A stretch of 64,000 nt of DNA from Isoetes taiwanensis (Eukaryota > Streptophyta > Lycopodiopsida > Isoetales > Isoetaceae): positions 20,203,018-20,267,017 of the forward strand of contig JAJEKV010000020.1 of NCBI GenBank assembly GCA_021234155.1, written 5' to 3'. Below the pieces are notes generated by a model. The model was not told the DNA's origin. It made no database searches and saw nothing but the letters and a program-made list of their open reading frames with translations. Shown one piece after another: positions 26,758-55,720 of the stretch. The position numbers and the translations under genes are program-made. The first letter of the stretch is position 1. Every line of letters starts with the position of its first letter.

Positions 26758-27984
26758 TTTCCAGCACCGATGGTGGAATAGGTACGATAGCCCTTTCAAT
26801 TCAGTACGAAAGTTTTAGATTTGCATTTTGTTGCAATTTGGATGCTTCTGATTTCTGCCGGATCAAATCCTACAGGAGTATTGCCTGGTAGGTTGGATCT
26901 GTGGAGGCAAAACATACAGGCTATGTAACAGAATGGCCATCGGAGAAAATCTATAATCCGCCATAGCTGGGAGTTCCACAACCCAACTCCAACTCATCAG
27001 TACATAAGTGGCCAGCTTGGGGATGAATGTCGGCGAAAATAATACAGAAGGTTAATAGTTTTGTTGCTGGATCCCTGCCTTTTGCATGACAAGATCGTGG
27101 ATGGATGCTTCTGCTCCTGTAAGTATAGTTTTCCTTCTTGGCAATTTCATTGGGGAATTCTCAGTTGCAGAATTGCTGTAAATACGATCAGTATATGCAA
27201 ATAAAACATATTCATTCGTTTCTCTTTCTCAACGCAATAATATACATATCACCCTTCTTTGTTTTGCTATATGAAGCTTTTGCTTATTTACCAGTTACCA
27301 GCAAAGGTTCGTTGGAGCATAAGATGCTTAAATATCTGTAAAACTAAGAGATTTAAGAAAATTAGATATGAGAAGAGATGGCCATCTGATGGTAAGTTTT
27401 ATAACTTGGCCATCTGAGGGCAATTTTTATACCCAAGTTTTATGGTAACCTAAATGTGGATGTGCTTCATCGATGCAGCATTTACCACAGTAAGTGTTTG
27501 CCATGGGGCTAAATAGAGAACCCAGTCTATTATTGACTTCAAATTTTAGTGCTGGATAGTGTCTATCCAAAATGCTTGCAACAGGAGATTCTTTTGCACG
27601 TTGATTAGCTTGGCCTCTTATTTAATTGACCTTGAAGCAGCCTACCTTTGATTTTGCGTATGTAGTGTTTGTTCTACTGGGATGCTATGAGGATTTTCAA
27701 ATTAGCATCTTGACTGTTTTATGTCATGTCTGCAGAATGTACTGCCGTATGGTTACCAAGACACACTGGCAGCTTTCATGAAGCCTGTGGAGAACCTTTC
27801 GTTCAATTTTGTCTCCAAAATGAAATGGCACAAATGCATTTCATGAAGATTATGCACTAGATTAAAGACCCATCATTGTGTGTGGTAGGTCTATGTTCTC
27901 TTCATTATCTAAATATATGCTTATTAGGGAAATGGATGAAGTTATGACTTTGCATTGCTGAAGTGTAAGACTGAAAGTTTCTGG
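26758..27984. other. No gene recognised
   Basis: Anonymous DNA up to the target-site duplication of the large transposon. Confidence 0.45.
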
Positions 27985-27988
27985 TAAT

Positions 27989-28010
27989 GGGTAAAAGCAC
28001 GCTGTGGTGT
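27989..28010 (+). repeat. Left terminal inverted repeat
   Basis: 22 bases, GGGTAAAAGCACGCTGTGG then TGT, preceded by TAAT. It pairs with 37,907-37,928 except for one position (A versus G at base 6). Confidence 0.88.
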
Positions 28011-28217
28011 ATCAAAAATGTGCATTTTGACGCCACATTTTGGCACCACCTTTGTGGTAGAATCGGGTGGTGCATACCGAAGCGGAGATTGCGGGAGTGC
28101 GAATTAATGAGCATCGATTATTTTGAATTTTATGCCACGTCATTGTCCACCTTTTTGAATTAAGAAAGAATCACCTCTTCCTCTGTTTTTTTGCCGCTTC
28201 TTGCCGATTGAACCCTA

Positions 28218-30830
28218 ATGGAGTCAGAATTGAACGCCACTGGTTACACGATGAAATCTCTCCTCAAACAAGAGATTGTGCCCCACGAAGATCTAAAGAA
28301 GCTTTGGGGTGACAGAGTTCCAAATAAATCTGGCTACAGGTATTTTCCCCCAAATGTTTTGTTCAAACTGCAAAAATTAAGGCATATGTTTTCTTGTACA
28401 GGTTGAAGAATCTGAGCAATGAACAATACAAAGAGTTCATGCAAATTTACAAAAGAATTACAGGGAAGCCACATACATGGGGCGGAATGGCTCCTGGAAC
28501 CTGGGCAGTGGCTTATTATCTGCATATAAAGGGGGAGGCTGTTAATTGGAAGAGCTTCTCGGATTATTATAAAACTCTCGATGAGAAAGCAGAGGCCAGT
28601 TCTTCTAGACCCAAGAGAAAGCATAGGCAAATCCAACCTGACGAGGAGGAAAATAGTAAAAGTGACAGGGATGATGAAGATGATAGGGAAAAAACCAAAT
28701 CAGGTTCCTCTAGACCACACATTCAATCTGAACTCACAATCAAAACAGAAAAGCAGAGCAATGTTCTGAGACCAAAACATGTTCAATTATTAGTTGTGTT
28801 ACAACAGAAAAAAAATCTCAAGCTTGATCTAGTTGTTTCTATCAACACAGAAAAGGTAACATCAAATCCACTTCAAGAATCAGGTATGTCTACTACCATT
28901 TTGCATCATGTTGGCTGTATTGTCATGTTGTGTCTCTATGATGCCATCGTGGGGCATTTTGCAATGGATGCCGAAATAGATGAGGTATGTGTGGTGGTGG
29001 TGAGTTGTTGGCATCCACCATGTCCCACACCACACCCCACGATCTCCCACCACTACACTCTACCATCTCCCACCGCCACACTCCCACACCACACCACCAC
29101 CACCACACACCACCACCATCACCACACTCCTCCACCACCACCACCACTCCACCACCACCACCACATTCCACCACCACCACACTCCACCACCACCACACCA
29201 CACCACCGTGACTCCACCATGTCCCACACCACAATCCACCACCACCACACTCCACCACAACCACACCACACCCCACCACCACACCCCACACTCCACCACC
29301 ACCACACCACACCCCACCACCACACCCCATCACCACACTCCACCATGTCCCACACCACACTCCACCACCACCACCACCACCAAACCCCACCACCACACCT
29401 CACCACCACCACACACACCACCACCACCACCACCACACACACCACCACCACCACCACCACCCCACCACCACCACCACACACACCACCACCACCACCACAT
29501 CGTGTTGTGTGGTGTGTACTGTGCAGCGTATGTTGTGTGGTGTGTGGTATGTGGTGGTATGTAGAGACTACCTTGTGTTGTGTGGTGTGTGATTGTGGTT
29601 TTCCATCAGTACGTGGCTTACTATTTTAGGAGGCTGACATATACGTAGTGTTTTGTTTTGCAGACTATGGCAGACTTGTGAAGGAATGGTTGGCTGCAAC
29701 ATCAGCTAGGTTTGATAGATGCAAGCAACGATTGCAAGCAAACGAGGATAGGAAAAATGATATCAAAAGAAAGATTGAGTTGATGGAGCATAAAGCATCA
29801 GAAATTAGAGCTGATTTGCACAGATGGCAATCAATCATGACAGCAAATCCGAAAGCAGCAGAGGGTGTTTGGGTTGTAAGCGAACTAAATGATGAAGAGC
29901 TAAATGGTACAGTGTTGCCTGGGCTGAAACAATTAAATAAGGAATTAACAGAAACTGAAATTGAGCTAAAGGCATGTGAAGACTTACTGCTGGAGCTGCT
30001 ACCTCGAATGCAAAGATTTGAGATTTTTTCTGAGCGTAGTAGTCATGACACTCCTTTAGATCCTGCACTTCCAATGCTTCCTGAGGCAGAAGAAGAGGGT
30101 GATGAAGGTTGTCCATTTTGTGGACGTTGTCTGAAATGGGAGGGTAAAATGTTGCCAGTTGTGATAGCAGAATGCAGTCACCAGTATCACATTCCATGTC
30201 TATCACACCATTTGAGGTAAATATTATCATCTCTAACCCTCGTCTAAAGACTCTATTGATTTTGGTTTTGCAGACACTCTAGAACCTGCTGCAGCCCCAG
30301 TTGTGGCCACATTATGACTGAGACATTTTGGTGTTCGAGTGGTACCACAAGAACCAATAGACACAAGTAAGTCCTTTTGCTGGCTTAGTCTCTTTTGCTT
30401 GTCCTGTTTATTGTATCTAAAGTGCCCCCTGGGATGAGATCGCTCGCTCATTTTAGGGGGCACTTTAGATATATATAAACAGGAACATCGAAAAGAGAGT
30501 AAAAAGCCTGGTGCGTGACCCTCTTGAATGGTTGTCAACTCACCAGGCTTGACATTGTTCGCTGCAAACAATATAGATTCGCTGCAAACAAGTGCCTTAA
30601 CTAATGTTTACTGATGTTGTCACAGGTCTACTGACTTAGTGTTTGCAGAATTGCAGAAATTTGAGACCAAGGATATCCAACAGTTATCCACGCCTCGATC
30701 AGTTATGAGACTGCAAGATACCTCCCGGTTGTACCTAGAATTCACCCCATTTGATACTCCTAAGTCAATCCCAGCTGCTGACGGCGTGGAGACTCCAAAA
30801 CGAAATTTGGATAGTCAACTGAATGCAAGC
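28218..30830 (+). CDS. Spliced RING-type zinc-finger protein inside the transposon
   Basis: Five exons with canonical GT-AG borders keep one frame: 28,218-28,339; 28,402-28,883; 29,664-30,216; 30,274-30,366; 30,626-30,830. Exon 1 starts MESELNATGY. Exon 2 has WGGMAPGTWAVAYYLHIKG, then an acidic Lys/Arg-rich, probably nuclear, linker. Exon 3 is helical and charged (coiled-coil-like, about residues 205-330). It ends with CPFCGRC.......ECSHQYHIPCLSHHLR, and exon 4 adds TCCSPSCG. Together these give a C..C / C.H..H..C / C...C pattern typical of RING or RING-like E3 ubiquitin-ligase domains. Intron 2 is filled by a CAC-rich tract. The frame stops at TGA (30,834) just past exon 5, unless a splice leads into the FCP1-like exon. 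No donor and acceptor pair that keeps frame was found there. Function in the element is unknown; a captured host gene is plausible. Confidence 0.62.
28990..29505 (+). repeat. CAC/CCA-rich tract inside an intron
   Basis: About 500 bases of (CAC)n, (CCA)n and CACAC variants lie within intron 2 of the RING-type gene. The sense strand is pyrimidine-A rich. GTG-rich sequence follows immediately (29,503-29,600: GTTGTGTGGTGTG...), so the strand bias flips at the end and a large hairpin is possible. Long protein-like frames through this tract (His/Pro/Thr runs) are artefacts of the repeat. Confidence 0.9.
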
Positions 30831-30911
30831 GTATGAAGCGGCACCGATGCCACATACATGATTTATTTTTGTATTTTTTACGTGGTCTTCCCGATTTCAA
30901 TTATGTTGCAG

Positions 30912-31854
30912 AGATAAATGCTACTGCAACTGGAAGCCATGACGAAGAGATTCCTAGTGCATCTGATTTAGGGGGGAAAATTAATTCCCTTGAGATTCAT
31001 TCTGTACGGGGTCCTTCACCAGAAAAAAGTTTTGGTGCTGAATATGAGCCAAATGCGGATGCAGGTGATGAAGTTGACAAAGAAACCCCGGATCCTGGAC
31101 AAGATGCAGACTGCTCAACGAGTCCAATACAACCTCAACCAACAAAAACCAAGAGGTTAACTGAAATTCTCCTTGTTCTGGATTTTAATGGGGTTTTAGG
31201 CAAGTTTTATGACTTGAAAGAGAGGATCCCTACATCGGCCGAGCCAGAAGTAACCATCCAGAAATTGAACCATCAAAAGTTCGCAGTTTCCAGGCCTGGA
31301 TTTCAAGAGTTCTTAGAATGGTGTTTTTCAAAATTTGAGATTGCATTGTGGTCCAGCATGGCTAAGAGTAAAGTTCGCAGTTTCCAGGCCTGGATTTCAA
31401 GAGTTCTTAGAATGGTGTTTTTCAAAATTTGAGATTGCATTGTGGTCTAGCATGGCTAAGAGTAATGTTGACTTGTTGACGAGAAAGTTGCTGCAGGAAT
31501 ATAAGGGCAGATTTCTTTTTACTTGAAATTAGGATGACTGCACCAACACAAAATTAAAAGTGGTTAATAAGCCAATTTTCCTTAAGGATCTGTCCAAAGT
31601 GTACCAGAAATTTTGGAGATACCAGGTGACAAACACATTGTTGATAGATGACAGCAGATATAAGGGTTACGCCAACCAAAGAACACAATGATATGTCCAA
31701 ATAGTTTTGCTCCGACGGGTTGGATTCCAATTTCCTTTTGGAGCAACTCAAACCATGGTGGAGGGACTTACGGCTGCGAGAAAGTGTGCCGGCTTATGTG
31801 AAGGAACATCAAATGTGGAACATGTGGGATTCTCAAGAGTCAAGAATCGCATGA
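30912..31854 (+). pseudogene. FCP1/NIF-type phosphatase-like gene, broken
   Basis: FCP1/NIF (HAD-superfamily) phosphatases remove phosphate from proteins such as the RNA polymerase II tail. After an acceptor-like TTGCAG (ending 30,911) the frame has an acidic linker, then EILLVLDFNGVLGKFYDL (about 31,165-31,220). This is the motif-1 region, with DxN in place of DxD, as in a plant subgroup. SRPGFQEFLEWCFSKFEIALWSSM follows in the HAD fold. A 94-bp tandem duplication (31,277-31,464) breaks the frame. Two stops then replace residues where related proteins have W..Q (31,522-31,533). NTLLIDDSRYKGYANQ (about 31,638-31,685) is the later Asp motif. A last frame slip leads to AYVKEHQMWNMWDSQESRIA and a stop at 31,854. 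Confidence 0.68.
31277..31464 (+). repeat. 94-bp tandem duplication in the phosphatase exon
   Basis: 31,277-31,370 and 31,371-31,464 are nearly identical (one C/T change seen, in GTCCAGC versus GTCTAGC). The unit starts AAGTTCGCAGTTTCC. Length 94 is not divisible by 3, so the duplication shifts the reading frame. The near-identity points to a recent event. Confidence 0.92.
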
Positions 31855-31959
31855 AAATGCTTTCGACAAGTATTTTCATAAATGAATCTTGTAAAACTCT
31901 TTGAAAGTCAATATAAGTAAAAAAAAATCTATGATATGTGTTGTACTTTTTCAATTTAA

Positions 31960-32899
31960 AATATTTGAATGGAATGTGAGCAAATGTTCTCGTGTGTGTT
32001 TAGAACTAGAGATGATAGAGCTTCGGCAGTCCCTGACTATCTAAAGCCAAATACACATCCGGAAGTGGTCTTTGAGTGGAACTGGAATCTGTCGTGATTA
32101 GCTCCACCGACATCAAAATTTTGGAAGCTGATACGCAGTGGTTCAATGATCAATTGATCCTCCTCTTCTCAAGGTGATACTTTCATCTGATTTGTGATCA
32201 TCAAGATTGTGCCAGATGATATGCATATGTTTGTAGATACATGGAATACTACTTGATTCTCCAAGGAATGAGCCATCCCTTTCATTTCTTTGACCCTCTT
32301 TTTCACTCAACATTGTCCAAGGACACAAATAGTTACAAAGCAATAAGGAAACATGTGAATCGGATAAGTGCCGATTACATGTTTTTGCCCCGCTTGTGAT
32401 GGACATCATGGACGTTTTTTCGATTGTAAAACGCGTGTCTCGCCTGAGATATAAACTAGGGATATATCACTTTGATAGCTCGGGCTTGCATGGCGAATGA
32501 CATATTGAGAGGTTAGTGCTTGCTCATTGCATTTCTTTGTTGTGGCACAATGACAACAAACTTTGAGTGCGGGGTTCCTCGGAATTGCTTGGACACAATA
32601 ATTTCAGCTTTATAACCTCGGATGTTGTGAAAATTTCCAGAACGCCTCTTCAAACCGATGGTCATTCATGTGGCCCTGCCGTATGTTCGTTTATGTACAA
32701 ATTTGTGAGGGGGTACTTAAAAGGAGTGAATATATTGTTGCCTGATCTAGTAAGTCAACTTAAATGCAGTGCAGACAAACCAAACGGTTATTGACAAAGT
32801 GTGGTTAACTACGGAGGTTGTGGACATTTCAGACCAAGATCTAGTTGATGTTAGAGTGTTCATGCTTGAAGTTTTAAGATTAGAAGCAACAAAAGTTTG
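31960..32899 (+). pseudogene. Ulp1-like (C48) cysteine protease remnant
   Basis: Ulp1-family proteases cleave SUMO or similar tags and are carried by several plant transposon types. On the + strand in shifting frames: FEWNWNL and TQWFNDQLILLFS (32,130-32,175), like the W..D..I start of the fold; EYYLILQGMSHPFHFFDPLF (about 32,243-32,300); RLRYKLGIYHFDSSGLHGE (about 32,440-32,498), the strand before the catalytic Asp; and TPLQTDGHSCGPAVCSFMY (about 32,643-32,700), the oxyanion Gln and catalytic Cys motif Q..G..CG. The end reads VVDISDQDLVDVRVFMLEVLRLEA up to a stop at about 32,899. Several stops and slips show decay. It lies downstream of the phosphatase frame, same strand. Confidence 0.65.
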
Positions 32900-33189
32900 A
32901 ACCGAGAGGAACATATGTATTGGGAAATATGTAGGTGCATGAGTCACCTCGTACTTAAATCATTGTATATCTTTCTTATGTACATAATTGTTATTGTAAC
33001 CTCGATTCATTTCAATGAAAATTCATATTCAATTCATCTCACAAACAAAGGAATCAAGTGTTTTGTAAGAATTCAAATCTTCAAAAGAAATCAAGACAAA
33101 CTCATTTTCACAATTTGAAGCACAAGACTTCACATGAGTTTGAAAACTACTGAGAATGGTTTTACATTTCATCATCATCGAAAAGAACC

Positions 33190-34960
33190 CGGGTAAATTA
33201 CGTAAAATTTTCTCCTCATCTAAAGGATCCATCTATATCTGATCTGTTTTTGGCGTTTAGTTGGTGGCATGTGAAGTCCGATTGCACAGTCGTGTTGTGA
33301 ATACTATGCCTAAAGCGTCTTTGCGCAAAGATCATAGGCGGCCGGTTGATCTTGCGCCCTTCTTGTAATACATACATTCTATGACACTATCACCGGTGAG
33401 GTACCATGTTCCATTGAGTTGGAAGTCTTTCTCCACTATCCATTTTGGTTTTGTGCACATCGAGAATCCAAAATTCAGAACCCTCATCATTCCTTTTGAA
33501 CAACGACAAACAAAATTATCACCAACTCTAAGTGCCTCTGCTAACATCGTGGGATTGGAGGAGAACAAGGACTCTTTGGATTTACTGATCCTCAATGTCA
33601 AGATGCACATTGGAGGATGGTACAATAACTTGAAGTTTTCAATCATCAGCGTAGTGCTTGTTCACTAACTGTCCCACATGCCATCCAAGCGGTAGGAGCT
33701 TGAAGCATGAAAGTTCCCTCGTGTGCAACCGCCGCGGGGAGATTGAGGATTGAATGCATGTACACAATGGATGCGCCTAGTGTCCAAAATCCTTTTACGC
33801 ACCCCATGCTTTCTTTCTATCTATATCCTCCACCTTGACTTCCCAAAAGAACCTTTTTTATATTCTTCCTCTTCTTGGTTTTCAGATGTGTTCATCCACT
33901 CGGATGTTCCACAAGTAAACATCTCTTCGGCAACTTCTACCACTTCATGAGCATTACCCAATTTTATGTCTTTGTATTTTTAATTGCGCTTGTCTTAACC
34001 ATCTCTTCAACTCGGCGGACTTTGCCATCGTGTTCACCTTTCCGTGGTTAGAACCAAAAAAATTCCACATCATATAGACATCGATTGTCGTTTGTGTACC
34101 TAGCCATAAAGTAAAATGGTCTAGAAGCCTTGAATTGAGATCTTCGCACCATCCGAAAACATATAATGTCCTGTTTGGAACCCCTTCCTTTACGCTCCGG
34201 ATATTTGTGGTGCTTCATGAGCGGTGTTGCCCGAACAAAATATCGTGTTCCCTATCATCGATACATAGTAATGTGTTTCCTTGATAATCTCATGCGCCGC
34301 CGAGTCATCTTGATATGTTATTTGAACCAAAATGGTAATCGGTTATTGACCCGGCGCGATCGGCGCACCTCCTCTTGTTTCTTGAATGTATAGTTTCTCG
34401 CAAAATCCACTACCGAGAGACATGCATCTGGGGGGAGATTCTCGAAGCTCCTTAAACTATTTTACACGCCATTGGTTTTTGAAATTATGCGGTGGAAAGA
34501 TTTTTAGGCGCTCTTTCGGTTTATCCGAAGCTCCTTGGGTTACGTCTCATTGTCTTGATGAGTGGGTCTCCTACGAGAACTTCGAGGCGTTGTCTTTTTC
34601 ATAGTCAATGTACTCCCATTTCACTTTCCTTCGCCACTTCCTTCCATGGGACAGTGCGAAACTTCTTGATTCCACACGACTCACAATTTCCAAGGATGCA
34701 CGCCTTCTTGTGAAACTCATCTAATTCACTCTTTGGACACAATATAGATCTCCACAAGCTTCTGTACTTGCAATTTTATCTTTGGTGTGCCCTGCATTGA
34801 CCAAGTTCATGTGATCTACAAACATCGCAGTGCAAGTGCAATTCTTCGGATGTTTGGTTCTCATCCCATTGAGTCCATCCACTAGCATTTGCATCCTCCG
34901 TCTTTGAATGCAAAGCAACTATTGAAGTCCTTCAATTTCACAACAAACCGTGGTTTTAGC
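33190..34960 (-). pseudogene. Transposase-like gene, catalytic part (decayed)
   Basis: Read on the - strand from about 34,920 downward, fragments in changing frames give: CTAMFVDHMNLVNAGHTKDK (about 34,780-34,840); LDEFHKKACILGNCESCGIK (about 34,660-34,720), with a C..C pair; CIDDREHDILFGQH (about 34,220-34,275); YMMWNFFGSNHGKVN (about 34,025-34,078); FFWEVKVEDID (about 33,830-33,863); and VGDNFVCRC (about 33,500-33,530). From memory, the order CxxC, DD.EHD..F.QH, WNFF...HGKG, YFWEV resembles a family of uncharacterised transposon-borne proteins in non-seed plants and animals. The Repbase class is not recalled with certainty. Placement opposite the + strand gene set and close to one terminus fits a transposase role. 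Confidence 0.5.
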
Positions 34961-35053
34961 TTCTCAAAAGCTCTAAGACGAATCTTAATTTCGGATGTTG
35001 GTCGTAAACCTCTTGAACAATAGGCTGCATGAAATGAACACTAAACTGTTGGG

Positions 35054-35870
35054 ATGTGTATACCACACCAAACCATGCACCATACCATGCCCCACACTCA
35101 TCATATTCACTTAAGCGAGCACCTTAGTCTGTGTACATTACCACACACCACACCACACCCCACCACACACCATACCATTCACCACACACCATACACCAAA
35201 TGGTGGAGTGTGGAGTGGTGGTGGAGTGTGGTGGTGGTGGAGGTGGTGGTGCTTGGGTGGTGGTGGTGGATTGTGGTGGTGGGGGGTGGTGGAGTGGTGT
35301 GTGGTGGTGGTGGGGTGTGGTGGTGGGGGTGGTGGTGGAGTGGTGTGTGGCGTGGTGGTGGGGGGTGGTGGTGGGGGTGGTGGTGGAGTGGTGTGTGGTG
35401 TGGTGGTGGGGGTGGTGGTGGTGGTGGTGTGTGTAGTGGTGTGTGGTGCTATGATGTGGTGTGGTGGAGTGTGGTGGTGGGGTGTGGTGGTGGGTGGTGG
35501 TGTGTGGTGGAGTGTGGTGGTGGTGGAGTGTGGTGGGGGGGTGTAGTGGTGGTGGTGTGGTGTGGTGTTGTGGATTGTGGTGTGATGTGGTGGTGGTGGA
35601 GTGTGGTGGTGGTGGTGGAGGGGTGTGGCGTGGGATGTGGTGGGATGTGTGTGCATGTGGTGGTAATGTGGTGGTCGCAAAGATGTGGTGGTAGTCTATG
35701 GTGGTGGGATAGATGGGGTGTGGTGGGGTAAGAGGGGAGAATAAATAAAATTGAATCCACACATATCATACACACCCACATGACACCATGGACATAACGC
35801 AACCCACACCACACCACACCACACCACACCACACCACACCACACCACACCATCACGACACCACACATCAC
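35054..35870. repeat. Strand-switching CAC/GTG microsatellite
   Basis: CAC-rich on the + strand to about 35,197, then GTG-rich (35,200-35,720), then CAC-rich again (about 35,790-35,870). The last part includes a clean (ACACC)n pentamer array at about 35,803-35,850. The switch at about 35,190-35,215 (ACACCAAATGGTGGAGTGTG) is itself an inverted repeat. It lies between the catalytic and N-terminal exon regions of the - strand transposase-like gene, so it is probably intronic. Its main body is CAC-rich on that gene's sense strand, mirroring the tract in the + strand gene. Confidence 0.9.
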
Positions 35871-36049
35871 ATCACATCACTTTTATCCTATTTCGTCTGA
35901 CATAAAAAATCTGCCTAGCCTGCTCTCATAAACACTTCTGAAATTCGTACACCCTGATAATAATTACATTCCTCTTCTAATCATTAGAAAAGGATCGGGT
36001 CCTAAATCCTCGTTCCTACGTCTGATTTTTGGCGTTTCATTCCCAATTC

Positions 36050-36570
36050 AAGCCAAATAGAAACAGGTTCATTAAGGCAACATGGTAGGATCCATGTTGA
36101 GAGATCACTACGGCTATTGTAGGGTGACCGAGGAGGGCATTTAGGCACATGTTAAACAGGGGCTCGTGATCAATCTCTCAAGGTGGATATGCCTAAATCC
36201 ACCTTCTTTGCTGATTTGAATCCAACCTAAAGGCATACAACAGACCGGATTTGGGCCTTCAATGGCTATGCTTGGAGTCGATTGATTGGGAGAGCTCTTA
36301 GACAAGGTCCATCAGCTTATGTTACATGCTGCTGCAAGGGCAGTTGGTATATTTGTTCTCTGTCACTTGTCCGCTCGACTCTGCTTGCGCGGGTTTTCTT
36401 GGCGAGAATTGCGTACTTACCACCCGAGGAGGATCACGGGAAGCAGCGGCAAACCTCATCTGTTAAATTTGGGATGACTGCAGAAAGCTTAGATGCTTTA
36501 GTGCAGAAAACAATAATTTTGGATGCACCAGTTCTCGAGCCAGTCATACCAGCATTTCCTGTTGCTTAGG
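36050..36570 (+). other. Unassigned coding-like stretch inside the transposon
   Basis: Overlapping + strand frames (36,060-36,170; 36,282-36,569) read as protein-like, with LDKVHQLMLHAAARAVGIFVL and AESLDALVQKTIILDAPVLEPV, but in different frames. No family is recognised. It may be a captured gene fragment or a part of the element lost from recognition. Confidence 0.3.
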
Positions 36571-36955
36571 ATCATGCATGTAAATTTAGTTCTCGGGTAC
36601 AGAGCTTTCAATGGAAAGCCAAATTTTGTAAAGCCAAATTTTGTAAGATCCTTTTTTTAATATATATCATACTTTCCAACAGAGTTTGCTTGAATCGACA
36701 AAAAAATTGTCTTTATTCAACAAAAATTTGTACCTCGGGATCGGAGTTAGTTATAGCTCAAATATTTTTAGACTGCATACACACACCCAAAAAGGAGTAC
36801 TCAATTTGTCATGTTCTAATAATATTCTAAACATTAAACATTGCATTTTAGGACTAGAGTCAACTACACACAATTCACATCTTCGCATCAAGATACACCA
36901 TAATCACTATACAACACAATAACCACCACATGCACCACCACACTAAGCACCATAA

Positions 36956-37660
36956 CTAAGAAAACATGAATAACAGAAATAAACTAACCTGTGAGTTCTC
37001 AATCCAAAATTTTTGAATCTTTTCTATATGTTCATCTGAAATTGCATCGAATCTTTTAGCCCTCTTGTAAGAAACCCATTTCCCACCATTGTGTCGATCT
37101 CTTCCCTCTTTTTTCTTTGCTTTTTTTGCGGGTTTCTTGGGTGAACACCTAATACCTTTCAAGATCTCATTTGGCTGATTTTGTCACTTGTTTGAGAATG
37201 CACTTGCGGCGTGTGTGACATTATTGCAAAGGCGGCTATTATTCTTGGCTGCTAGGCGGTCATTGCTGGTAGAGAGTTTGACGGTCTCCGCATGGAGTCC
37301 CAGAGGCTCCTTATAGCGATGCTCTTGGCTTCCGGATCCTTTAATTCTTCACCTATGAATTTTTCCAATGTTTTATCCCTCAAAAATCAAGTAAAAATTT
37401 CTTTCTTCGTGCTATCCTCCATTCTTTTGGTCCGTTTTATGGAAAGGCGTTAGCAAATTAAGGACAATACTGGCGTTCTTTGCTTGCACTTCTTGATGAA
37501 CCGGATCATACGCCAATTCACGCAAGCTCAATTTTTCTTCTCTTCTTCTTTTCCTCTGGCGTCTTTTCTTCAATATTTCTTGTTCCTTGGTTCTTCTTCG
37601 TTTTCTTTTGTCTGAAATGCCGGTTTGTGTACAGATTACCTCATTGACATCCATATCCAC
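36956..37660 (-). pseudogene. Transposase-like gene, N-terminal exons
   Basis: On the - strand a frame starting MDVNEVICTQTGIS (about 37,655) runs to a stop at 37,412. It has a strongly basic stretch (KRKRRRTKEQEI, KKRRQRKRRREEK), probably a nuclear-localisation or DNA-binding segment. After a frame-broken gap, 37,162-36,990 gives GIRCSPKKPAKKAKKKEGRD, KWVSYKRAKRFDAISDEHIEKIQKFWIENSQ. A donor-like GT lies close to the end. These are read as upstream exons of the transposase-like gene at 33.2-35.0 kb, because they share strand and lie between it and the right terminus. This is inference. Confidence 0.45.
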
Positions 37661-37906
37661 AATGGATTGGAGCTCGCAGCAGGGAGGGAGCCAAAGAACA
37701 GGACGTAGGCAAAGAACAGGAAGGGGCCAAAGAATAGGAATTTGAATTTGAATTTTAGTTTTTGAAATTAGAATTTCCCCCACAGCTGAGCGGGACTCTA
37801 TTTTTAAATACCGGCAGCTGAGCGGTGCCATAATTATACTTTTATACCACAAAAGTGGTGGATGCAACGCCACATTTTGGGGGGACAGGGGGACAGCCGA
37901 ATTGGA

Positions 37907-37928
37907 ACACCACAGCGTGCTTCTACCC
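37907..37928 (-). repeat. Right terminal inverted repeat
   Basis: Reverse complement reads GGGTAGAAGCACGCTGTGG then TGT. Followed by TAAT (37,929-37,932), the same four bases that precede the left end. Confidence 0.88.
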
Positions 37929-37932
37929 TAAT

Positions 37933-39250
37933 GTCATTGAATGTGTTGTTTAAGTTATTCTAGCATTTGAGTGTAGGCATGATCCAACGTACATTTATTG
38001 CGTTACAATTGAGCATATACTTTTGCTATATGCAGGAGCAGCTAGTGGACATTATTAAGCAACTATTAATAGGATTTTGGCATCCTGCATTCTGTATTAC
38101 CTAAGCTACAATGGTATTCGCATTTCCAATGTTGTTCCTTCTACTTATTTTAGATTCTTTGCTCTTCTAGAGCTTCACCCTCGTGCGTCTATTTCAGGTA
38201 ATTTTGCTGGAGCTTTTACTATTTGGAGCTTTGTTGTATTTTAGAGTTAAAGCCGTTCTATTGAACTCGGAAGTCTGATGGAGGGATTTTGTGAGTTCGT
38301 TAGATAGACTCCATTTTAATGCTGCTTCTTTTATGAAAAATGCAAAGTAGAGCAATGTTTTCGCATGCAGGTTCATTTTGCGCTGTAGTGTTCAGCAGAG
38401 CCTTATTCTTTTTTTTGGGAGGGGGGCCATAGCAATTGCAATTCTGCGTCTTAAATTGTCTTGAGCTTGATTGTTCCTCCCATGGTAAAATCGTCTGAAT
38501 ATCTTTGCCTGGATGGTTTGTCTCATCAATAAGAAGCCTCTCATAAGCAATTGTATTGGCCAGGGCTTCTCTCAAGTTTTTCTGTCTGAGCTTGAACTTG
38601 CTGGCATATTTCAGATCCTTGAAAATGAGAGTGTGCTTTCCATTTTGTTGATTTGAATGTCTCTTTTTGAATTTATCGCTAGAATCTCAGCTTTTTGAGT
38701 GAGTCTAGATCATTGCAACGTTGTTTGGGATTTGTCTAGATGTAGTTCAATTTACACTTGTTGTATTGAATCATTGTCCTTGCCTACTACACTTTGCGGA
38801 GTTGTGCAACTTTCGGGTGAGATTTTCCATATATGTAATATGCATCTCTCTTATTATTTTAAATTGCAAGAAGTTATTTCATTCGCTCATTACTGTCTAG
38901 CAAAAGCAGCCTACGATCTTGGTAGTTCCTTTGATGGAACTTTAGCAGGTGTGCAAAGCAATTTTGTTTGCTTGACCTTCAGCCAGAGGAAGATTAGGAG
39001 ATAGAAGAAGAGGAGTCAGCACAACAAGAACTCCCCTAGTCTATGCTAAAAACACATTCTCTCTATTTATGCAAACGTTGGTAGAGAATTTTAATGGTAG
39101 ATTAAATCCTACTGAGAGGCCACGATCAACAAGTTCTTTGTGTGAGGATGGTCTTGAATCATAAACTTTATGGAACTATGGTCGTTTCATGCAAACTGAA
39201 CCATCCATGTGAACAGTAGCATAAAAAAGATGTTTGCATTGCACAGTGCA
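37933..39250. other. No gene recognised
   Basis: Short open frames only. No second copies within the window. Confidence 0.45.
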
Positions 39251-42908: not shown

Positions 42909-43637
42909 TCACAAGATTCTCTTGGTTGTAGCTTGCCTAGCGAAGTGAGCTGAACAAGCACCATTATGACACATCTCCAACACATATTGTTGTTCCTCTT
43001 TGCTTAAACACATCTGGAGTACCCCATCAGCACTTCTACGACAAAGTATACCATCAACAAGCAAGAATTGAGATAGCTTCCACTTTATTCTTCTCTGTTC
43101 TGGGCCTATGAAATGATCTGGCAAGTCTAATCCATGTAATAAGTATATGTAGAACAACATCCATGAGTCTTGGATGAATATGCAAGCCGAGCTTTCAGCC
43201 ACCTCTTCTGGAATGATGTCCTCCTCCATGAGAGCATACGGCAAATACCCACTTGGATTGCTGAGAGTGTGAGCTGATTTAATTGCAAAGTCAAATTGTG
43301 CCAGGTAAGACATCCACTTTTGATGCTTAGCCTTCTTAAGGCTCTTCCCTGATATCAGTGGCATGGGATTCTTTTTCATGATGATTTCAGTGTGCTCCTT
43401 ACGTAGAAGGTGCTCATGCCTATGAAATAAGAACACCAATGCACAAGCATACCTTTCTAGTACAGGATATCTGTTCTCCACATCTGAAAATTGCCTCTCG
43501 GAGTAGCAAATTATATCATATCCCTTCGTCTCATTCTTTTGACATAAAGCAACCCTGATGGCCCACTTAGTTACTGTGACAAATGCATTGTAAGGACGAC
43601 CGTCTTGTGATGGCACTAAAACTGTAACACTTGTCAT
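42909..43637 (-). pseudogene. gypsy RNase H and integrase zinc-binding region
   Basis: A 242-codon open frame. The first part (KWAIRVALCQK, YSERQFSDVENRYPVLERYACALVF) is the connection/RNase H-like domain that follows reverse transcriptase in gypsy elements. LSNPSGYLPYALM corresponds to the usual N..AD.LSR end, degraded. The second part (FLLVDGILCRRSADGVLQMCL, then CHNGACSAHF) is the start of the integrase HHCC zinc-binding domain. It continues in another frame into the integrase core. Confidence 0.78.
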
Positions 43638-43704
43638 GATCTGCAGTAATTTATCAAAAGCATCTTGGCATTTTAGTTACTGTGACAAATGCACCGGTGT
43701 ACTT

Positions 43705-44616
43705 TTACTTTGCCCCTTTAAGAGCTTCCCAACACAGGTAAGCTTGGTAATTGGACCCATTAAATGTGAAAATTTTGGAATATGTATCTGTTTTGGGCAC
43801 AGATAGCTTATGAATGATTTCGATCTTCTTACTTGAAATTTGTATCCCTCTGGTTGAAACATAGTGCCCCAAAAGCACTCTTCCGTCACGAAAGAACTGG
43901 CACTTAGCTGGATTAAGACATACTTGGGATGCTCTGCTTAAGGTCAGCACTTCCTCCAACTATTTTAAGTGAACCGCACGTTTGTTAGCCAAGCATAAAT
44001 TGTCAAGGAAGATGCCTAAACCTTGCTGGAGCATGCTGCGATATGTCACTGCCATACACCTCTGAAATGTGGCAGGAGCGTTCATTAAGCCAAAGGGCAT
44101 CACATTCATGGCATAGGTGCCCCAAGGCGTGATGAATGCAGTTTTTGGCCTATCTTTCGGACAAATAGAGATTTGGTTAAAACTGTTAAAGCCATCCATG
44201 AATGAAAATACCTCCTGCGTAGCCGCTTGATAAAGTATCTCTTCTTGGAATGGTAAGGGGTAATGATCCTTCAAAGTGGCCTTGTTCAAGTCTTGATAGT
44301 TCACACATACTCTGATCTTCTTGTTCGTTTTTAGCACAGGGACAATACATGATACCCACATCGGATTTTCAATCTCATATATAAAACCAACCTGCAACAA
44401 TTTGTCAAGCTCTTCTTTCACCATATTGAGCAGGTGCGGGTTAATCCTCCTCAGCTTGTGCTTGACCGGCATCACTTCTTCTTTTTTATTGATATGGAAC
44501 TCACAAACCTTTGGAGGTATTCCTTTTAGCTCCCCATAGTCCCAAGCAAAATAGTCTGCAAACTTGTTAAACATTTTGGTCAGCTTTGATTTTTCTTTCT
44601 CGCAGCCATTCTCCAA
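43705..44616 (-). pseudogene. gypsy reverse transcriptase
   Basis: Two adjoining frames (44,616-43,960 and 43,959-43,705). Visible motifs: FADYFAWDYGELKGI; INPHLLNMVKEELDKLL.VGFI; RVCVNYQDLNKATLKDHYPLP; FSFMDGFNSFNQI; KTAFITPWGTYAMNVMPFGLMNAPATFQR. The catalytic box reads FLDNL where active elements have Y.DD, so the second Asp is lost. The thumb region continues with CQFFRDGRVLLGHYVSTRGI. A stop between the two frames also breaks it. Confidence 0.88.
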
Positions 44617-44753
44617 TCTTTAAAGTTCTCTCCTTCCCATTCTTCACAACTGTAATCTCAGACAATTTATTGGCACTTCAGTAGATATAGTAAAAATTTC
44701 GCATATGTGTTGTCCAGAGCCCTGTGGCAGCTCATCTTCTCTCACCACTCCCT

Positions 44754-45452
44754 TCACACAAAAGCTTCCATAATGATCTTTTTACATAAAGCATCAGCTT
44801 CTGTGTTATGTGTTCTTGCCATATGAGAAATTCTAACCTCTTTGAATCTGCTTAATAATGAGAGTGTCTCTTTACATGGCTCCTGCAAATGAGCGTACTT
44901 AACTTGATAAAGCTGCAAAGATTGGTTGCACACCAGCTCTGAGTCTCCCTGAACCTGCAAGACTTCAATCTCTTGGTCCAAAGCTAAGCGTAATCCTGTT
45001 ATCAAGGCTGCATATTCTACCATATTATTTGTGCACAAGGGAATGGATTGGCCATGTGTTAGGATAAGCTCACCCTTAGGTCCTCTTATAACAACACCGA
45101 TTGAGGCTAAGCCTAATTTCTTTGACATACCTGCTGGTGGGCCCAATTCATTAAATATACTATAATTTCCAGCACTCACCTCTGCAACAACATCTTCAAC
45201 TTCAGCTATGTATACAGGTGTCTCCATCATTTTTCCCACCCTTTTTGCATAAATTGTAGCCTTGTTTTGACCATCCGAAATCGTGCATTCACCTTTTCTC
45301 CATATTGATCTAGCATCTACTGCAGTTAGCCATGTCCTACCTAACAGCAAATCATAAGAACAAGCATGTTGTATTGGATCGGCAAAGGCTATGACCATAA
45401 AGTTGGCTTTTGTTCTCAGACCCTGGACATCTAGTTTGCCATTTTCCACCAT
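44754..45452 (-). pseudogene. Protease end plus additional (archaeal-type) RNase H
   Basis: The frame begins with the end of the aspartic-protease region (YDLLLGRTWLTAVDA). It then holds a second RNase H: GLASIGVVIRGPKGELIL; TNNMVEYAALITGLRLAL, with the catalytic Glu; QVQGDSELVCNQ, with the catalytic Asp; and RTHNTEADALCKK, the last acidic site. The first catalytic Asp position appears as Asn (FNELG). Such an extra RNase H marks the Tat group of plant gypsy elements. In the versions I know best it follows the normal RNase H; here it lies before reverse transcriptase. Confidence 0.78.
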
Positions 45453-45454
45453 CC

Positions 45455-46560
45455 CTATTGGACTGACAGACTGCTGGTTGAACCTTTTATGATCAGAGAT
45501 GAAGTTGAAGTGATGTGCAAGCCTAACAACATGATATGATGGGGCATGACATTGACTCCTGACCCTCCATCTACAATAACATTTGACACTTCAAAGTCCC
45601 CTACATAAGCTGAGCAAGGTAAGACATCTGGATCTTCAAATTTTGCTTCACTAACTAATAAAATATGATCGTTGGGTGATTCTACATCAATTAACTGCAA
45701 AAACCCCTGTTTGTAGGAAGGCGATGCTCTAAACAAGGTCAACAGATCTATACTTACCTTGGTAGATTTAAGAAGGTGTTCTACTTGTGAGCTTGGAGTC
45801 AAAGCTGAGATTTTTGGGACCGGAACTGGTGGCAACCTCTCCCTTGCTTTAAGTAGCTCATTTGTTTGATCAAGTGGCTGTTTCCCTTTGTCTGCTTGCA
45901 ATCTCTTTATTGCTAGAACAGACGTTATATCTGGTTCACAGGTCTCAATCATGCAAGAACTTGCCTCAATTGCTTTTTCCTTTCCCCCGATTTGATCAAA
46001 TGCCTTTACTTGGCAGAACTTATCATCATGCCCTGTTAGACCACAATATGTGCATACAGGACATTCCTTACCAAAGTGGCCACTCTTAGTACATCTTGGA
46101 CATGGTCTTCTCCAACATGTTTCCTCTGTGTGACCGATCCTATTGCAGAGCTTGCATGCCATGCTTGATGCTGTGGACATATTTATCATGTTTTTCTGCA
46201 TCTCTTCCATCATTTTTTTTATCTGCTCCCCAAACTGTTCTTGTTGTTTTGTGAGCTGTAATTGCAAGTCCTTCTGCTGCTTCTTCAGATCCTCTTTTGC
46301 TCTATCTCAAGTCTGCTACCTCCTTTTTCTCACTTTTCTCTGCCCTGACTGCATAAACAAAAGCATTCTCATGCATAATAAAATGCTCATACCATAGTTT
46401 GGCCTTCCCCTTCATACATTTTTTAAACATAAAAATCTTATCTCCTCACCTCCTGCCGTGTAATTCATAATAGTCTTCAAAATTGTGCAAGAACGCAGTT
46501 GGGTTCCACGAACCATCAAAAGCTAGAGGAGCTGGTGTAAAGGGAGCTAGCAGCATTCCA
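45455..46560 (-). pseudogene. gypsy gag (3' part) and protease
   Basis: On the - strand: FDGSWNPTAFLHNFEDYYELHG (about 46,455-46,530) and MFKKCMKGKAKLWYEHFI (about 46,380-46,435) are gag capsid motifs. The open frame 46,267-45,455 carries a Gln-rich coiled segment and then zinc knuckles (CKLCNRIGHTEETC, CPRCTKSGHFGKEC, CTYCGLTGHDDKFC). It ends with an aspartic-protease site in which VIVDGGSGVNVMP stands where D[ST]G is expected. The missing S/T suggests an inactive protease or drift. Confidence 0.82.
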
Positions 46561-50639: not shown

Positions 50640-52142
50640 TCAAGTGAAAAATATGGATGTATATCTAGAGCCACTCATCGAAGAGTTGCAAATACTATGG
50701 AAAGGGATCCAAATGCATGATATAACTAGGTCGCCTCAGGCATTTACCTTTCGTGCTATATGTTGTTTCACCATTCATGACTACCCAGGATTTGGCTATG
50801 CATCAGGTGTGTTATACATATTATAAATTTGTATTCTAGGCTATATCCTTTGATGATTGTATAGTTTTTCTCATCTTTCATTTCTTAATGCATAGGTTTG
50901 CAAACAAGTGGAAAGTTTGGATGTCCTTCATGTGGAGTCGAGTTGCCATCTTATCGCTCGAAGCACTTATATAAGCAAATATACCGTGGCCATAAAAAAT
51001 ATTTGCCACCTGCACATCACATGCGTGGACGTATAAACACTGGAAAACCAAGAAGAAGAACTCCCAAGGATTGGTTAGATACTTGGGTAGAAGCTCGTAC
51101 ATCCCAAAATTTGACTGATGATAGTTTGGTGGTTGCACCCCCTGGTATGAAACGACTTTCCATTTTCTATAGCCTTGAGTACTGGTCACAGCTAAAAATT
51201 GCACACTTGCTCGACCCCATGCATATCTTTAAAAATGTCGGCCACTCATTATGGAGACATTTAATTGGTGATTGTGATACTTTGGCCAGTAGAAATGATT
51301 TGAAGGATCAAAACATAATGCCGCAATTATGGCCACCACAAAATGGACGGAAGTGCAAAAGTGCACCTTGGGTACTAAGCAAGAAAGAGGAGAACCAAGT
51401 CAAACAGGTTATATCTAGTATGAGAACACCCACGGGTTATGCTGCATCCTTGCGCAAGGCATTCACCAGAGATGGTGAGCTTAAGGGATTGAAGACACAC
51501 GATTGGCACAAGTTTCTACAAGTAAGTATTGAATTCCTTTTGTAAATATATAAAATTGCATTTAGTTTTTACATACATTTTGCATTTGTTGCATCATGCT
51601 CGACAATGCATTATAATTCAATTTTGATACCAATATTTGCTTTTTATTTTAGCATGTTCTACCATGTGCGATAGATAAATGCCTGACACCAAAAATACGA
51701 GATGTCATTTATCGGTTGGGAAAGTTTGCAAGGTACAAAACCTATGACTTGTTAGTTCATTATGTGAAATTGTATTAATAGCAATATTATGTGTCACAGG
51801 TGGGTTTCCTTAAAGGAAATTAATGTGTCTGATATACCAAAAATGGAGGTTGAAGTTGTTGAATTATTATGCATCTTAGAGCGAGATTTTCCTACCAGTT
51901 TTTTTGATCTTCAAGTACATCTTTTGATACATCTCCCAGAGGGGATTCGCTTGCTTGGGCCAGCTCCTGGACGTTGGATGTTCTTTTTGGAATGGTATAT
52001 GAAAGTTTTAAAAGGTTTTGTTCGTCAAATGGCTAGACCAGAAGGATGTATGGCAGAAGGGCATTTGGTGCAAGAGATCCTTTTCTTCATGACTGATGCC
52101 ACCACATCAATACAAGGGGATGCTCCACATATATGGAAGAAA
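50640..52142 (+). pseudogene. CACTA TNP2/DUF4218 transposase, 5' missing and LINE-interrupted
   Basis: TNP2 is the CACTA transposase that cuts at the termini. Exons on the + strand: about 50,640-50,803 (MDVYLEPLIEELQILW, AFTFRAICCFTIHDYPGFGYASG, donor GTGTG); 50,896-51,521 (GLQTSGKFGCPSCGVELPSYRSKHLY, GHKKYLPPAHHMR, FYSLEYWSQLKIAHLLDPMHIFKNV); 51,651-51,733 (HVLPCAIDKCLTPKIRDVIYRLGKFAR); 51,800-52,142 (VVELLCILERDFPTSFFDLQVHLLIHL, GRWMFFLEWYMKVLKGFVRQMARPEGCMAEG), the DUF4218 region. The N-terminal part that normally carries the helper domain is absent upstream. A LINE begins at about 52,145, cutting off the C-terminus. Confidence 0.85.
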
Positions 52143-54205: not shown

Positions 54206-55720
54206 ATGGGAACCTCTCCTACTACTATGGAAGAGAATATTGACAATTTCATTCAGATTCAGAGATCCATCCAAGATGAGCAGAATGAAAGCATGAATGC
54301 TCCTTTTACCAATGAAGAATTGTGGGCAAATGTTTCAGGTATGGAAAATGGTAAGACTCCGGGTCCTGATGGCCTCCCAGTGGAATTTTTTAAAAAAACT
54401 TGGAATATTATTGGAAATGAGGTTACTAATGTGTGTAATGAGTTTTTAATTCTCAGGAATCTAGACTGCAGAATCAATACCAGCTTTATCTCCTTGATCC
54501 CTAAAATAGATGAACCTGAAACTTTCTCTGATTTCAGACCCATATCCCTCACCAATGTTATTTACAAAATCATCTCTGCTACCATAGCCTCTAGACTGAA
54601 ACCTATTCTGGATCTTACCATCTCCAATACCCAAAGTGCTTACCTAAAGGATAGGTCCATTCTAGATAATGTAGCCACAGCTATCATTGGCATGCATTGG
54701 GCTAAAGAAACTAAACAGGACATTGCCCTGCTCAAACTGGATATTACTAAGGCTTTTGACACGGTCAGCTGGAGTTTCCTCTTCAAATGTTGTCAAAAGA
54801 TGGGGTTCTCCCAGGAAGTGATAAGTATTTTTCAAGCCATCCTTTACAACTCAAGATCCTCGGTTCTGATCAATGGAGAATGCAGCCCTTTCTTTGAGAT
54901 AAAGAGAGGCGTCAAGCAAGGTTGCCCTCTCGCCCCTTTTCTTTTTCTTATAATCATGGAAGCCTTGAATTGTGCTTTCAAAAAAGCTGACCAGGAGAAG
55001 AGAATTGTGGGACTTAAACTTCCTGATAATCAAGAGGCATGTTTTTTCCTTAATGCTCACTTTGCAGATGACACTTTTCTCTTTGTCACTATGGAAGAAA
55101 GATCCATCACAAACACCCAAATTGTTCTCCAAGACTTTGGTAATTGCTCGGGATGTAAGATCAACCCTCTCAAATCCAAACTCATTGCAAGAAATCAGGT
55201 AAAAGGGCAGCAAACTGCCCAAACCCTTGGCTGTGAGTATCTCTCCCCAATTACTAATAAATCTAAAATCTTGGGTATTCCTTTTGCTTTAAGGACTAAT
55301 GCTAGTAATCTTTGGGGGGATATTATTGAGAAGTTCCACAGAAAGGCTGATCTCTTAAACAGTAAATATCTGTCCAAAAATGGAAGAGCTATCTTAGCCA
55401 ACTCGGTCATTTCTTCTTCTCATGTTTACCAGTCTTCTATCCTCTTAGCTTCTAAAAAGGTCACTTCTAAACTCCAAGGCATTTTAGGTAGATTTATTGC
55501 TAGTGGGGGTAGCAACAGAACCTGGGTTCCAGTTTCCATGAAAGAATGTATGAAGAAAAGGAAGCATGGTGGTCTTGGAGTTTTGGATATTGAGAAACAA
55601 GGGCTGGCCCCGGCGATAAATACATTTATAGAGCTGGCCATGATGAGATTAATCACCACGTGTCAAAGCTTATTGATCATTACCTTGCTAAGTGTAAACC
55701 CTTTGGGTGGAGAAATGTGA
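54206..55720 (+). CDS. LINE reverse transcriptase, long intact stretch
   Basis: A 504-codon open frame with the full non-LTR reverse transcriptase motif series: GKTPGPDGLPVEFFKKTW; SFISLIPKIDEPETFSDFRPISLTNVIYKII; LDITKAFDTVSW, with the first catalytic Asp; RGVKQGCPLAPFLF; and FADDTFLF (about 55,061), the catalytic Y/FADD box intact. Thumb motifs follow (SKILGIPF, KNGRAILANSVISS, CMKKRKHGGLGVLD). The frame shifts near 55,660, where 55,660-56,301 continues. The catalytic core is intact but endonuclease and ORF1 are broken, so the copy is not autonomous. Confidence 0.92.
   Translation: MGTSPTTMEENIDNFIQIQRSIQDEQNESMNAPFTNEELWANVSGMENGKTPGPDGLPVEFFKKTWNIIGNEVTNVCNEFLILRNLDCRINTSFISLIPKIDEPETFSDFRPISLTNVIYKIISATIASRLKPILDLTISNTQSAYLKDRSILDNVATAIIGMHWAKETKQDIALLKLDITKAFDTVSWSFLFKCCQKMGFSQEVISIFQAILYNSRSSVLINGECSPFFEIKRGVKQGCPLAPFLFLIIMEALNCAFKKADQEKRIVGLKLPDNQEACFFLNAHFADDTFLFVTMEERSITNTQIVLQDFGNCSGCKINPLKSKLIARNQVKGQQTAQTLGCEYLSPITNKSKILGIPFALRTNASNLWGDIIEKFHRKADLLNSKYLSKNGRAILANSVISSSHVYQSSILLASKKVTSKLQGILGRFIASGGSNRTWVPVSMKECMKKRKHGGLGVLDIEKQGLAPAINTFIELAMMRLITTCQSLLIITLLSVNPLGGEM

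What the first reader, a model, noticed from the sequence alone, without database searches (positions are those of the whole stretch)
27989..37928. Unclassified 9.9-kb DNA transposon with RING, FCP1-like and Ulp1-like genes
Seen: 22-bp termini (one mismatch), TAAT on both sides, and coding for a RING-type domain, a FCP1/NIF phosphatase-like domain, a C48 protease and a decayed transposase-like gene facing the other way. Known: Ulp1-like proteases ride on some MULE, CACTA and KDZ-type elements, but those have 9-, 3- and 8-bp duplications. A ubiquitin-type finger together with a phosphatase and a SUMO-type protease in one element would be an unusual set of protein-modification genes. Inference: a distinct lineage or a strong gene-capturing member of a poorly described one.
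Basis: partly seen in the sequence, partly recalled or inferred. Interest (0 to 1): 0.85.

Follow-up and report, generated by a model that had tools for sequence, protein, structure and literature searches.

The report
Transposon with conserved phosphatase-like, RING, protease gene
This is one dead copy of a jumping gene that is present in many copies in a plant genome (very probably the quillwort Isoetes taiwanensis); beside its transposase it carries coding sequence for a RING-like finger, an altered phosphatase-like domain and a SUMO-type protease, and related phosphatase-like domains are found next to distantly related transposases too, which suggests that they help such elements to move.

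Summary
Window 27989-37928 is a complete DNA transposon copy: 22-bp ends with one mismatch, TAAT on both sides, six uninterrupted paralogous sites. The family is large: 383 exact ends, none for the reversed control; 4-bp target duplications of variable sequence in 14 of 15 listed pairs, and in 15 of 16 of a second subfamily. The transposase is on the minus strand in two exons, with three aspartates invariant in 17 aligned proteins and no relative in Pfam or PDB. Best fit is Sola (DDD, 4-bp duplications); membership could not be tested by sequence. The plus-strand genes are not fresh captures: subfamily D25 has the same series in the same order. FCP1-like domains lie convergent to related transposases at 27 of 150 listed places, all 27 among the 96 weaker ones, none among the 54 stronger (cut-off set afterwards). 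Six FCP1-like domains read have D-x-N-G, a seventh has lost the first D too; four host-type genes have D-x-D-x-T. Three have dN/dS 0.22-0.30. Reading: a Sola-like cut-and-paste element with a selected helper; its function is inferred. My ten literature searches found no description of it.

The parts
27989..37928 (.). whole transposon copy, 9.94 kb
27985..27988 (.). target-site duplication TAAT, left
37929..37932 (.). target-site duplication TAAT, right
27989..28010 (+). left terminal inverted repeat, 22 bp
37907..37928 (-). right terminal inverted repeat, 22 bp, one mismatch to the left
28218..28340 (+). helper gene exon 1 (unknown N-terminal domain)
28403..28783 (+). helper gene exon 2 (unknown N-terminal domain; related stretch in subfamily D25 and in distant relative T2)
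28970..29530 (+). CAC-rich minisatellite in the intron between exons 2 and 3
29663..30217 (+). helper gene exon 3: charged stretch, probably helical, and first part of the RING-like finger (CPFC...CSHQYHIPC)
30275..30371 (+). helper gene exon 4: last part of the RING-like finger; matched in two overlapping frames in this copy
30627..30833 (+). helper gene exon 5
30914..31875 (+). FCP1/NIF-like exon, motif LVLDFNGVL (D-x-N); 94-bp tandem duplication at 31276-31469 in this copy
32011..32174 (+). Ulp1/C48 protease exon a
32238..32515 (+). Ulp1/C48 protease exon b (His and Asp region; broken in this copy)
32582..32767 (+). Ulp1/C48 protease exon c (TPLQTDGHSCGPAVC)
32817..32939 (+). Ulp1/C48 gene, possible last exon
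33165..35048 (-). transposase core exon (family blocks VVDFAENY, SDGA.SQFK, GKGEHDG); several frameshifts in this copy, near-open in L013-L017
35050..35870 (-). CAC-rich minisatellite (GTG-rich on +) in the transposase intron
36986..37654 (-). transposase N-terminal exon, basic, weak HTH_3 match (E 0.009, below cut-off)

Best explanation
A decayed copy of an abundant cut-and-paste (class II) transposon of a Sola-like lineage. SHOWN: defined ends, 4-bp duplications with uninterrupted paralogous sites, many copies, a transposase conserved in related lineages with three invariant aspartates, and convergent coding stretches whose domains (N-terminal domain, RING-like finger, FCP1-like D-x-N domain, Ulp1 protease) recur in part or whole with related transposases. 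INFERRED: the transposase binds the ends through its basic N-terminal exon, cuts by an RNase-H-type DDD centre and joins 4 bp apart; the helper is read as one spliced multi-domain protein; its Ulp1 and RING parts remove or add SUMO/ubiquitin on the transposase or on host silencing factors, and the FCP1-like part binds phosphorylated targets (for example the RNA polymerase II tail) rather than hydrolysing them, so that the element stays expressed.
For: Ends, copies, duplications, uninterrupted sites. Transposase: nearly open frames in L013, 632-aa core plus 247-aa N exon with a few stops; stop-free frames of 629 and 620 aa in relatives L024 and L025; D235, D319 and D360 (L024 numbering) invariant in an alignment of 17; dN/dS 0.07-0.18 in all 9 pairs that are 69-77% identical. 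Helper: NIF 1.6e-16 and C48 5.3e-9; same series and order in D25; D25's helper region aligns with two copies of its subfamily, L038 and L039, at 87-92%; L040 and L041 have an open FCP1-like frame directly convergent with a related transposase; 27 of 150 listed NIF places have a convergent transposase hit within 5 kb, all among the 96 at 80.4 bits or less, none among 54 stronger (chance expectation 0.04); 5 of 52 listed C48 places have a convergent T2-type transposase within 5 kb (chance 0.05). D-x-N-G in family 1 and L040-L044, D-x-D-x-T in four of four host-type genes read; dN/dS 0.22-0.30 for the three pairs among L041, L043, L044.
Against: The selection test inside the window's own family is inconclusive, changes look largely neutral, and it did not run for the transposase core. 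Three close transposase pairs (94-98% identical) have dN/dS 0.35, 0.45 and 0.97, and 16 of 28 pairs are saturated. The set is not fixed: T2 has the N-terminal domain, a RING-like stretch and C48 but no FCP1 match; L040 and L041 have no Ulp1 between FCP1 and transposase (upstream parts not fetched); two of three diverged loci (D63, D64) show no helper part in the stretch fetched, and L017 only the end of FCP1 and Ulp1. L038 and L039 keep the helper region but lack the transposase core. The one D25 copy reads F-Y-Y-N-G, so the first aspartate is lost there too, and no such motif was found in L038 and L039. L042 and L044 were not shown to lie beside a transposase. The 80.5-bit split was set after seeing the list, and the 27 places are mostly of two related kinds, so not 27 independent events. 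The RING finger is below every Pfam cut-off. A single spliced protein rests on splice-like joints in a majority reading, without transcripts. No structure could be predicted.
Confidence: 0.8

Rival explanations
1. A member of a known superfamily other than Sola with 4-bp duplications (Ginger, Kolobok, piggyBac, Chapaev or Academ) that picked up passengers.
For: Ginger1 elements make 4-bp duplications and many of their transposases carry Ulp1 (PMC2836005, passages).
Against: Duplications are not TTAA, CCGG or CCGT specific; ends are GGGT, not TGTNR; no integrase or transposase model among the Pfam matches listed up to E 10, a range where the filters drop most weak matches. Chapaev and Academ were not tested by sequence.
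Confidence: 0.12
2. Captured host gene fragments in a gene-trapping lineage; the helper genes have no role in transposition.
For: Within the window's family the coding parts decay almost neutrally; domain sets differ between lineages; two copies keep the helper region without transposase core.
Against: Same domain order in a subfamily with about 60% identical transposase core; convergent FCP1-like frames with diverged transposases at 27 of 150 listed places; dN/dS 0.22-0.30; D-x-N motif unlike the four host genes read.
Confidence: 0.12
3. A virus-like or very large composite element rather than a simple cut-and-paste transposon.
For: Several accessory domains; length near 10 kb.
Against: No polymerase, capsid or integrase among the matches of the pieces scanned; no relative confirmed in viral contigs; 9-10 kb unit with short ends and uninterrupted paralogous sites.
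Confidence: 0.02

Closest known systems
Sola superfamily (Sola1, Physcomitrella)
   Same: 4-bp duplications, DDD-type transposase, variable ends, mostly 2-9 kb and some over 15 kb, known from a moss (PMC10741241 and PMC9033089, passages)
   Different: The passages read mention no helper with RING, FCP1 or Ulp1 domains.
Ginger1
   Same: 4-bp duplications; Ulp1 domain on many elements (PMC2836005, passages)
   Different: Integrase-like transposase fused to Ulp1 or OTU, TGTNR ends, CCGG/CCGT targets; here the protease is coded convergent to the transposase, ends are GGGT, targets vary
Mutator-like elements carrying Ulp1
   Same: Ulp1 protease carried by a plant DNA transposon (stated in PMC2836005, passages)
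   Different: MULE duplications are 7-12 bp (PMC10741241, passages); no FCP1-like or RING-like part in the passages read
FCP1/SCP (NIF) phosphatases of the host
   Same: PF03031 domain over cut-off
   Different: Second aspartate of D-x-D-x-T is asparagine in the six FCP1-like domains read with an intact first D, and in D25 with that D lost; four host-type genes read keep D-x-D-x-T

Membership tests
Sola | 4-bp target-site duplications | tested here: met
   12 of 12 copies with both ends found, of 13; 14 of 15 and 15 of 16 listed pairs
Sola | DDD transposase | tested here: inconclusive
   D235, D319, D360 invariant in 17 aligned proteins; the residue two before the third D is E or T.
Sola | transposase sequence related to Sola1, Sola2 or Sola3 | not testable with these tools
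   no Sola sequence available; no transposase match in Pfam, none in PDB
Ginger | Gypsy-integrase-like transposase and TGTNR ends | tested here: not met
   no integrase among listed matches up to E 10; ends GGGT
Ginger | 4-bp duplication, CCGG/CCGT in Ginger1 | tested here: not met
   length fits, sequence varies
Kolobok / piggyBac | TTAA-specific duplication | tested here: not met
   TTAA in 2 of 15 listed pairs only
Mutator (MULE) | duplication of 7-12 bp | tested here: not met
   4 bp, no 5-bp match in 31 pairs
CACTA (EnSpm) | 3-bp duplication and CACTA ends (recalled) | tested here: not met
   4 bp, GGGT ends
KDZ / hAT | 8-bp duplication (recalled) | tested here: not met
   4 bp
Active FCP1/SCP phosphatase | D-x-D-x-T/V motif (recalled) | tested here: not met
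   D-x-N-G in family 1 and L040-L044; F-Y-Y-N-G in D25
RING finger | Pfam RING model over cut-off | tested here: not met
   best E 0.0079 (window frame), 0.012 (family reading); CPFC, C-x-H-x2-H-x2-C and CC-x3-C kept between family 1 and D25
Ulp1 / peptidase C48 | PF02902 over cut-off | tested here: met
   36.7 bits against 20.7 in the family reading; 29.0 in relative T2, on a piece joined from two stretches

The most novel reading that the evidence does not exclude
An undescribed clade (or sister group) of Sola-like DNA transposons whose frequent partner is a phosphatase-fold protein with the second catalytic aspartate replaced by asparagine, joined in some branches to a RING-like finger and a SUMO protease: a transposon-owned toolkit that reads or edits host phospho-, ubiquitin- and SUMO-signals, perhaps at RNA polymerase II, to escape silencing.
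Probability: 0.35. Interest if true: 0.8.

Novelty: new variant of a known kind. Interest (0 to 1): 0.62.

Why it matters
Ulp1 proteases on transposons are known, but why they are there is open. Here the protease, a RING-like finger and an FCP1-like domain occur as separable parts with transposases of one lineage, so which part matters can be asked by comparing branches that lack one. A phosphatase-like partner kept by selection on DNA transposons would be a new kind of helper, and the lineage is abundant in a plant genome (probably a lycophyte) where open transposase frames still exist.

Tried and rejected
Structure prediction of the transposase: tool switched off, not tried again. Relatives in viral contigs and in bacterial and archaeal genomes: none confirmed, one scan each. 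PDB by sequence with the A1 profile: none. Pfam and NCBIfam for the transposase: only sub-threshold matches to unrelated models, or none. Rfam on the window: none. Within-family selection test: inconclusive, and not run for the transposase core, whose frame pattern was not found. Literature: ten searches; I read listings, and passages of six papers, and saw no transposon with FCP1 or NIF domains; Yuan and Wessler 2011 and Bao et al. 2009 are not held. Considered and rejected: ends matching by chance (control); a non-transposon gene cluster; Ginger, Kolobok/piggyBac, MULE, CACTA, KDZ (membership table). The end of T2 (GGGTAGAAGCATG) was found on one side only. On checking I found that L038 and L039, which I had taken for complete relatives, lack the transposase core.
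Full report
WHERE IT IS. The window lies in G000, 1,658,258,908 bases in 1110 contigs. The published Isoetes taiwanensis assembly has 1658.30 Mb in 204 scaffolds and 909 contigs (PMC8566536, passages). I infer the organism from this size alone; no sequence was compared.

THE ELEMENT IS REAL. The ends and TAAT duplications are as reported. The 21-bp end pattern occurs 383 times exactly and its reversed control never. Searches with the left and right 300 bases return 40 scored places each (529 and 509 candidates), with borders 0-7 and 0-11 bases from those predicted. Twelve copies were fetched; with the window, 12 of 13 have both ends by exact pattern and all 12 have identical 4-bp duplications. 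Among the places listed (a part of 310; the pattern asks for a non-G at its first base) 15 pairs of facing ends lie within 30 kb; 14 have a 4-bp match, 1 of 15 matches in a 3-bp and none in a 5-bp register. Duplications are TTAA, CATG, ACGT, TGAT, ATGC and others, so TAAT is not a target rule. The joined flanks with a single TAAT match six places in full or nearly so, the best at 99% over 357 of 357 bases: paralogous uninterrupted sites. The insertion fits a precise 4-bp event.

THE FAMILY. Thirteen copies are 78-97% identical to their majority, twelve of them 94-97%, L002 78%. A second subfamily with ends GGGTGAAAGCATGTTGTAGTG has 431 matches (same kind of non-G restriction); of 16 listed pairs 15 have 4-bp duplications. 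A more distant relative, T2, begins GGGTAGAAGCATG on the one side found. The transposase search listed 100 matches from 87 scored of 12,452 candidates; such counts are rough.

TRANSPOSASE. In the window it is broken by frameshifts. In L013 the N-terminal exon (247 aa) and the core exon (632 aa) are nearly open, with a few stops. The N exon is basic with a sub-threshold helix-turn-helix match (E 0.009). Relatives in the same genome have stop-free frames (L024 629 aa, L025 620 aa). The alignment A1 of 17 proteins has invariant D235, D319 and D360 (L024 numbering) in the blocks VVDFAENYT, SDGCAAQ and GKGEHDG; position 358 is E or T, so the third acid is most likely the D. This fits a DDD transposase; that is inference, since no model could be made. 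No transposase relative was found in Pfam, NCBIfam or PDB and none was confirmed in viral or prokaryotic contigs. Pairs 69-77% identical have dN/dS 0.07-0.18 (9 of 9); the three pairs at 94-98% have 0.35, 0.45 and 0.97; 16 of 28 pairs are dS-saturated.

HELPER GENE. Family-level majority reading gives, on the plus strand: an unknown N-terminal domain (exons 1-2), an exon ending in CPFC...CSHQYHIPC, continued by CC-x3-C (RING-like), a linker exon, an FCP1/NIF exon and Ulp1 exons. GT...AG joints fit at three introns and a GT donor at a fourth; an in-frame joint links linker and FCP1; a joint from FCP1 to Ulp1 (DK|DDRAS) is possible, so one protein is plausible but unproved. NIF E 1.6e-16, C48 E 5.3e-9, best RING model 0.012 and below cut-off. 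The FCP1 motif is LVLDFNGVL.

IT IS NOT A FRESH CAPTURE. D25, whose transposase core is 63% identical (N exon 41%), has the N-terminal domain 40-45%, the RING-bearing exon 33%, FCP1 38-46% and Ulp1 23-32% identical, in the same order and convergent to the transposase. L038 and L039, two copies of that subfamily with end patterns, align with D25 through the helper region at 87-92% and give protein matches to the N-terminal domain and FCP1, L039 also to the RING-like part, neither to Ulp1 at E 1e-3; both keep the transposase N exon but lack its core, so they are non-autonomous copies that kept the helper region. D63 and D64 (core 62 and 59% identical) showed no helper part in the stretch fetched. 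T2, transposase 36% identical, has the N-terminal domain (27%, E 7e-6), a sub-threshold RING-like stretch and C48 (E 1.2e-6), and no FCP1 match.

FCP1-LIKE DOMAINS ACROSS THE GENOME. PF03031 gave 151 matches from 3263 candidates (150 scored); 150 listed places were typed into. Two further transposase searches with diverged relatives listed 151 and 150 places; 186 of these 301, those on shared contigs, were typed in. Convergent transposase within 5 kb: 27 of 150 NIF places, 23 of the 27 at 1.9-2.3 kb; one more place has another orientation. All 27 are among the 96 places at 80.4 bits or less, none among the 54 stronger; the split at 80.5 bits was set after seeing the list. Chance expectation is 0.04. 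Both lists are truncated, so 27 is a lower bound, but the places are mostly of two related kinds and not independent events. L040 and L041 show an open FCP1-like frame (297 and 268 aa including upstream open codons) running head-on into a related transposase, without Ulp1 between. The motif is DVNGVL, DLNGVL, DMNGVL, DLNGAL, DLNGVL in L040-L044 and DFNGVL in family 1; the one D25 copy reads FYYNGVL, with the first aspartate lost, and no such motif was found in L038 or L039. Of L040-L044, a neighbouring transposase is shown for L040, L041 and L043, not for L042 and L044. Four stronger, host-type genes read DLDET, DLDQT, DLDQT and DLDHT (L045-L048). Among L041, L043 and L044 (61-68% identical) dN/dS is 0.22-0.30; L040-L042 gives 0.41; the other six FCP1 pairs are saturated. 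For C48, 5 of 52 listed places (150 scored of 800 candidates) have a convergent T2-type transposase within 5 kb; chance 0.05.

AGAINST. Inside family 1, changes are near-neutral in most exons tested; shared transitions give N/S ratios 0.41-1.09 with small counts, shared transversions up to 1.9; the transposase core was not analysed. Domain sets differ between branches. I cannot exclude that the FCP1-like domain came from a host D-x-N relative; that such plant genes exist is something I recall, not something tested.

HOW IT LIKELY WORKS. Ends, transposase and 4-bp duplications imply excision and 4-bp staggered joining. The helper's role is inferred: Ulp1 and RING parts suggest SUMO/ubiquitin editing, the D-x-N domain suggests binding without, or with slowed, phosphatase chemistry. 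That L038 and L039 kept the helper region while losing the transposase core would fit a helper acting in cis or a passenger without role; two copies cannot decide.

RELATION TO KNOWN KINDS. Sola is described as DDD with 4-bp duplications and ends of 11-1124 bp, present in Physcomitrella and seemingly not common in flowering plants (PMC10741241, passages; PMC9033089, passages). Membership by sequence is untested. Ginger1 carries Ulp1 or OTU on an integrase-like transposase with TGTNR ends and CCGG/CCGT targets (PMC2836005, passages); not met here.

Noticed in passing
28970-29530 and 35050-35870: Both genes of the element have a long intron filled with CAC-rich minisatellite, in the same sense relative to each gene; the transposase introns of D25 and D63 also look repetitive in translation.
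   Followed up: partly
31276-31469: 94-bp tandem duplication inside the FCP1 exon; split alignments suggest that the other copies aligned lack it, not tested separately.
   Followed up: partly
about 30415-30475: Short inverted repeat CTAAAGTGCCCCCT...AGGGGGCACTTTAG, looks like a small hairpin element inserted between exons 4 and 5.
   Followed up: no
36315-36567: Plus-strand stretch inside the large transposase intron that is open in the majority reading of 13 copies; no explanation.
   Followed up: no
G000:C907:40535749 and 40537547: Two same-strand ends 1.8 kb apart with identical 12-base flanks: a local duplication of an element end.
   Followed up: no
27800-27988 and 37933-38100: The insertion site is itself repeated: six near-identical uninterrupted places, four of them within 61 kb on C1048.
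   Followed up: partly
L038 and L039: Two copies of the second subfamily that keep the helper region and the transposase N exon but lack the transposase core.
   Followed up: partly
42909-46267 and 54206-56301: Fragments that look like a Gypsy-type LTR element (minus strand) and a LINE reverse transcriptase (plus strand), named from the translated frames, no search made.
   Followed up: no
50898-51545: Frame resembling a CACTA (En/Spm) transposase, by recall only.
   Followed up: no
L041: Related transposase core with a lysine- and glutamate-rich insertion between two conserved blocks.
   Followed up: no
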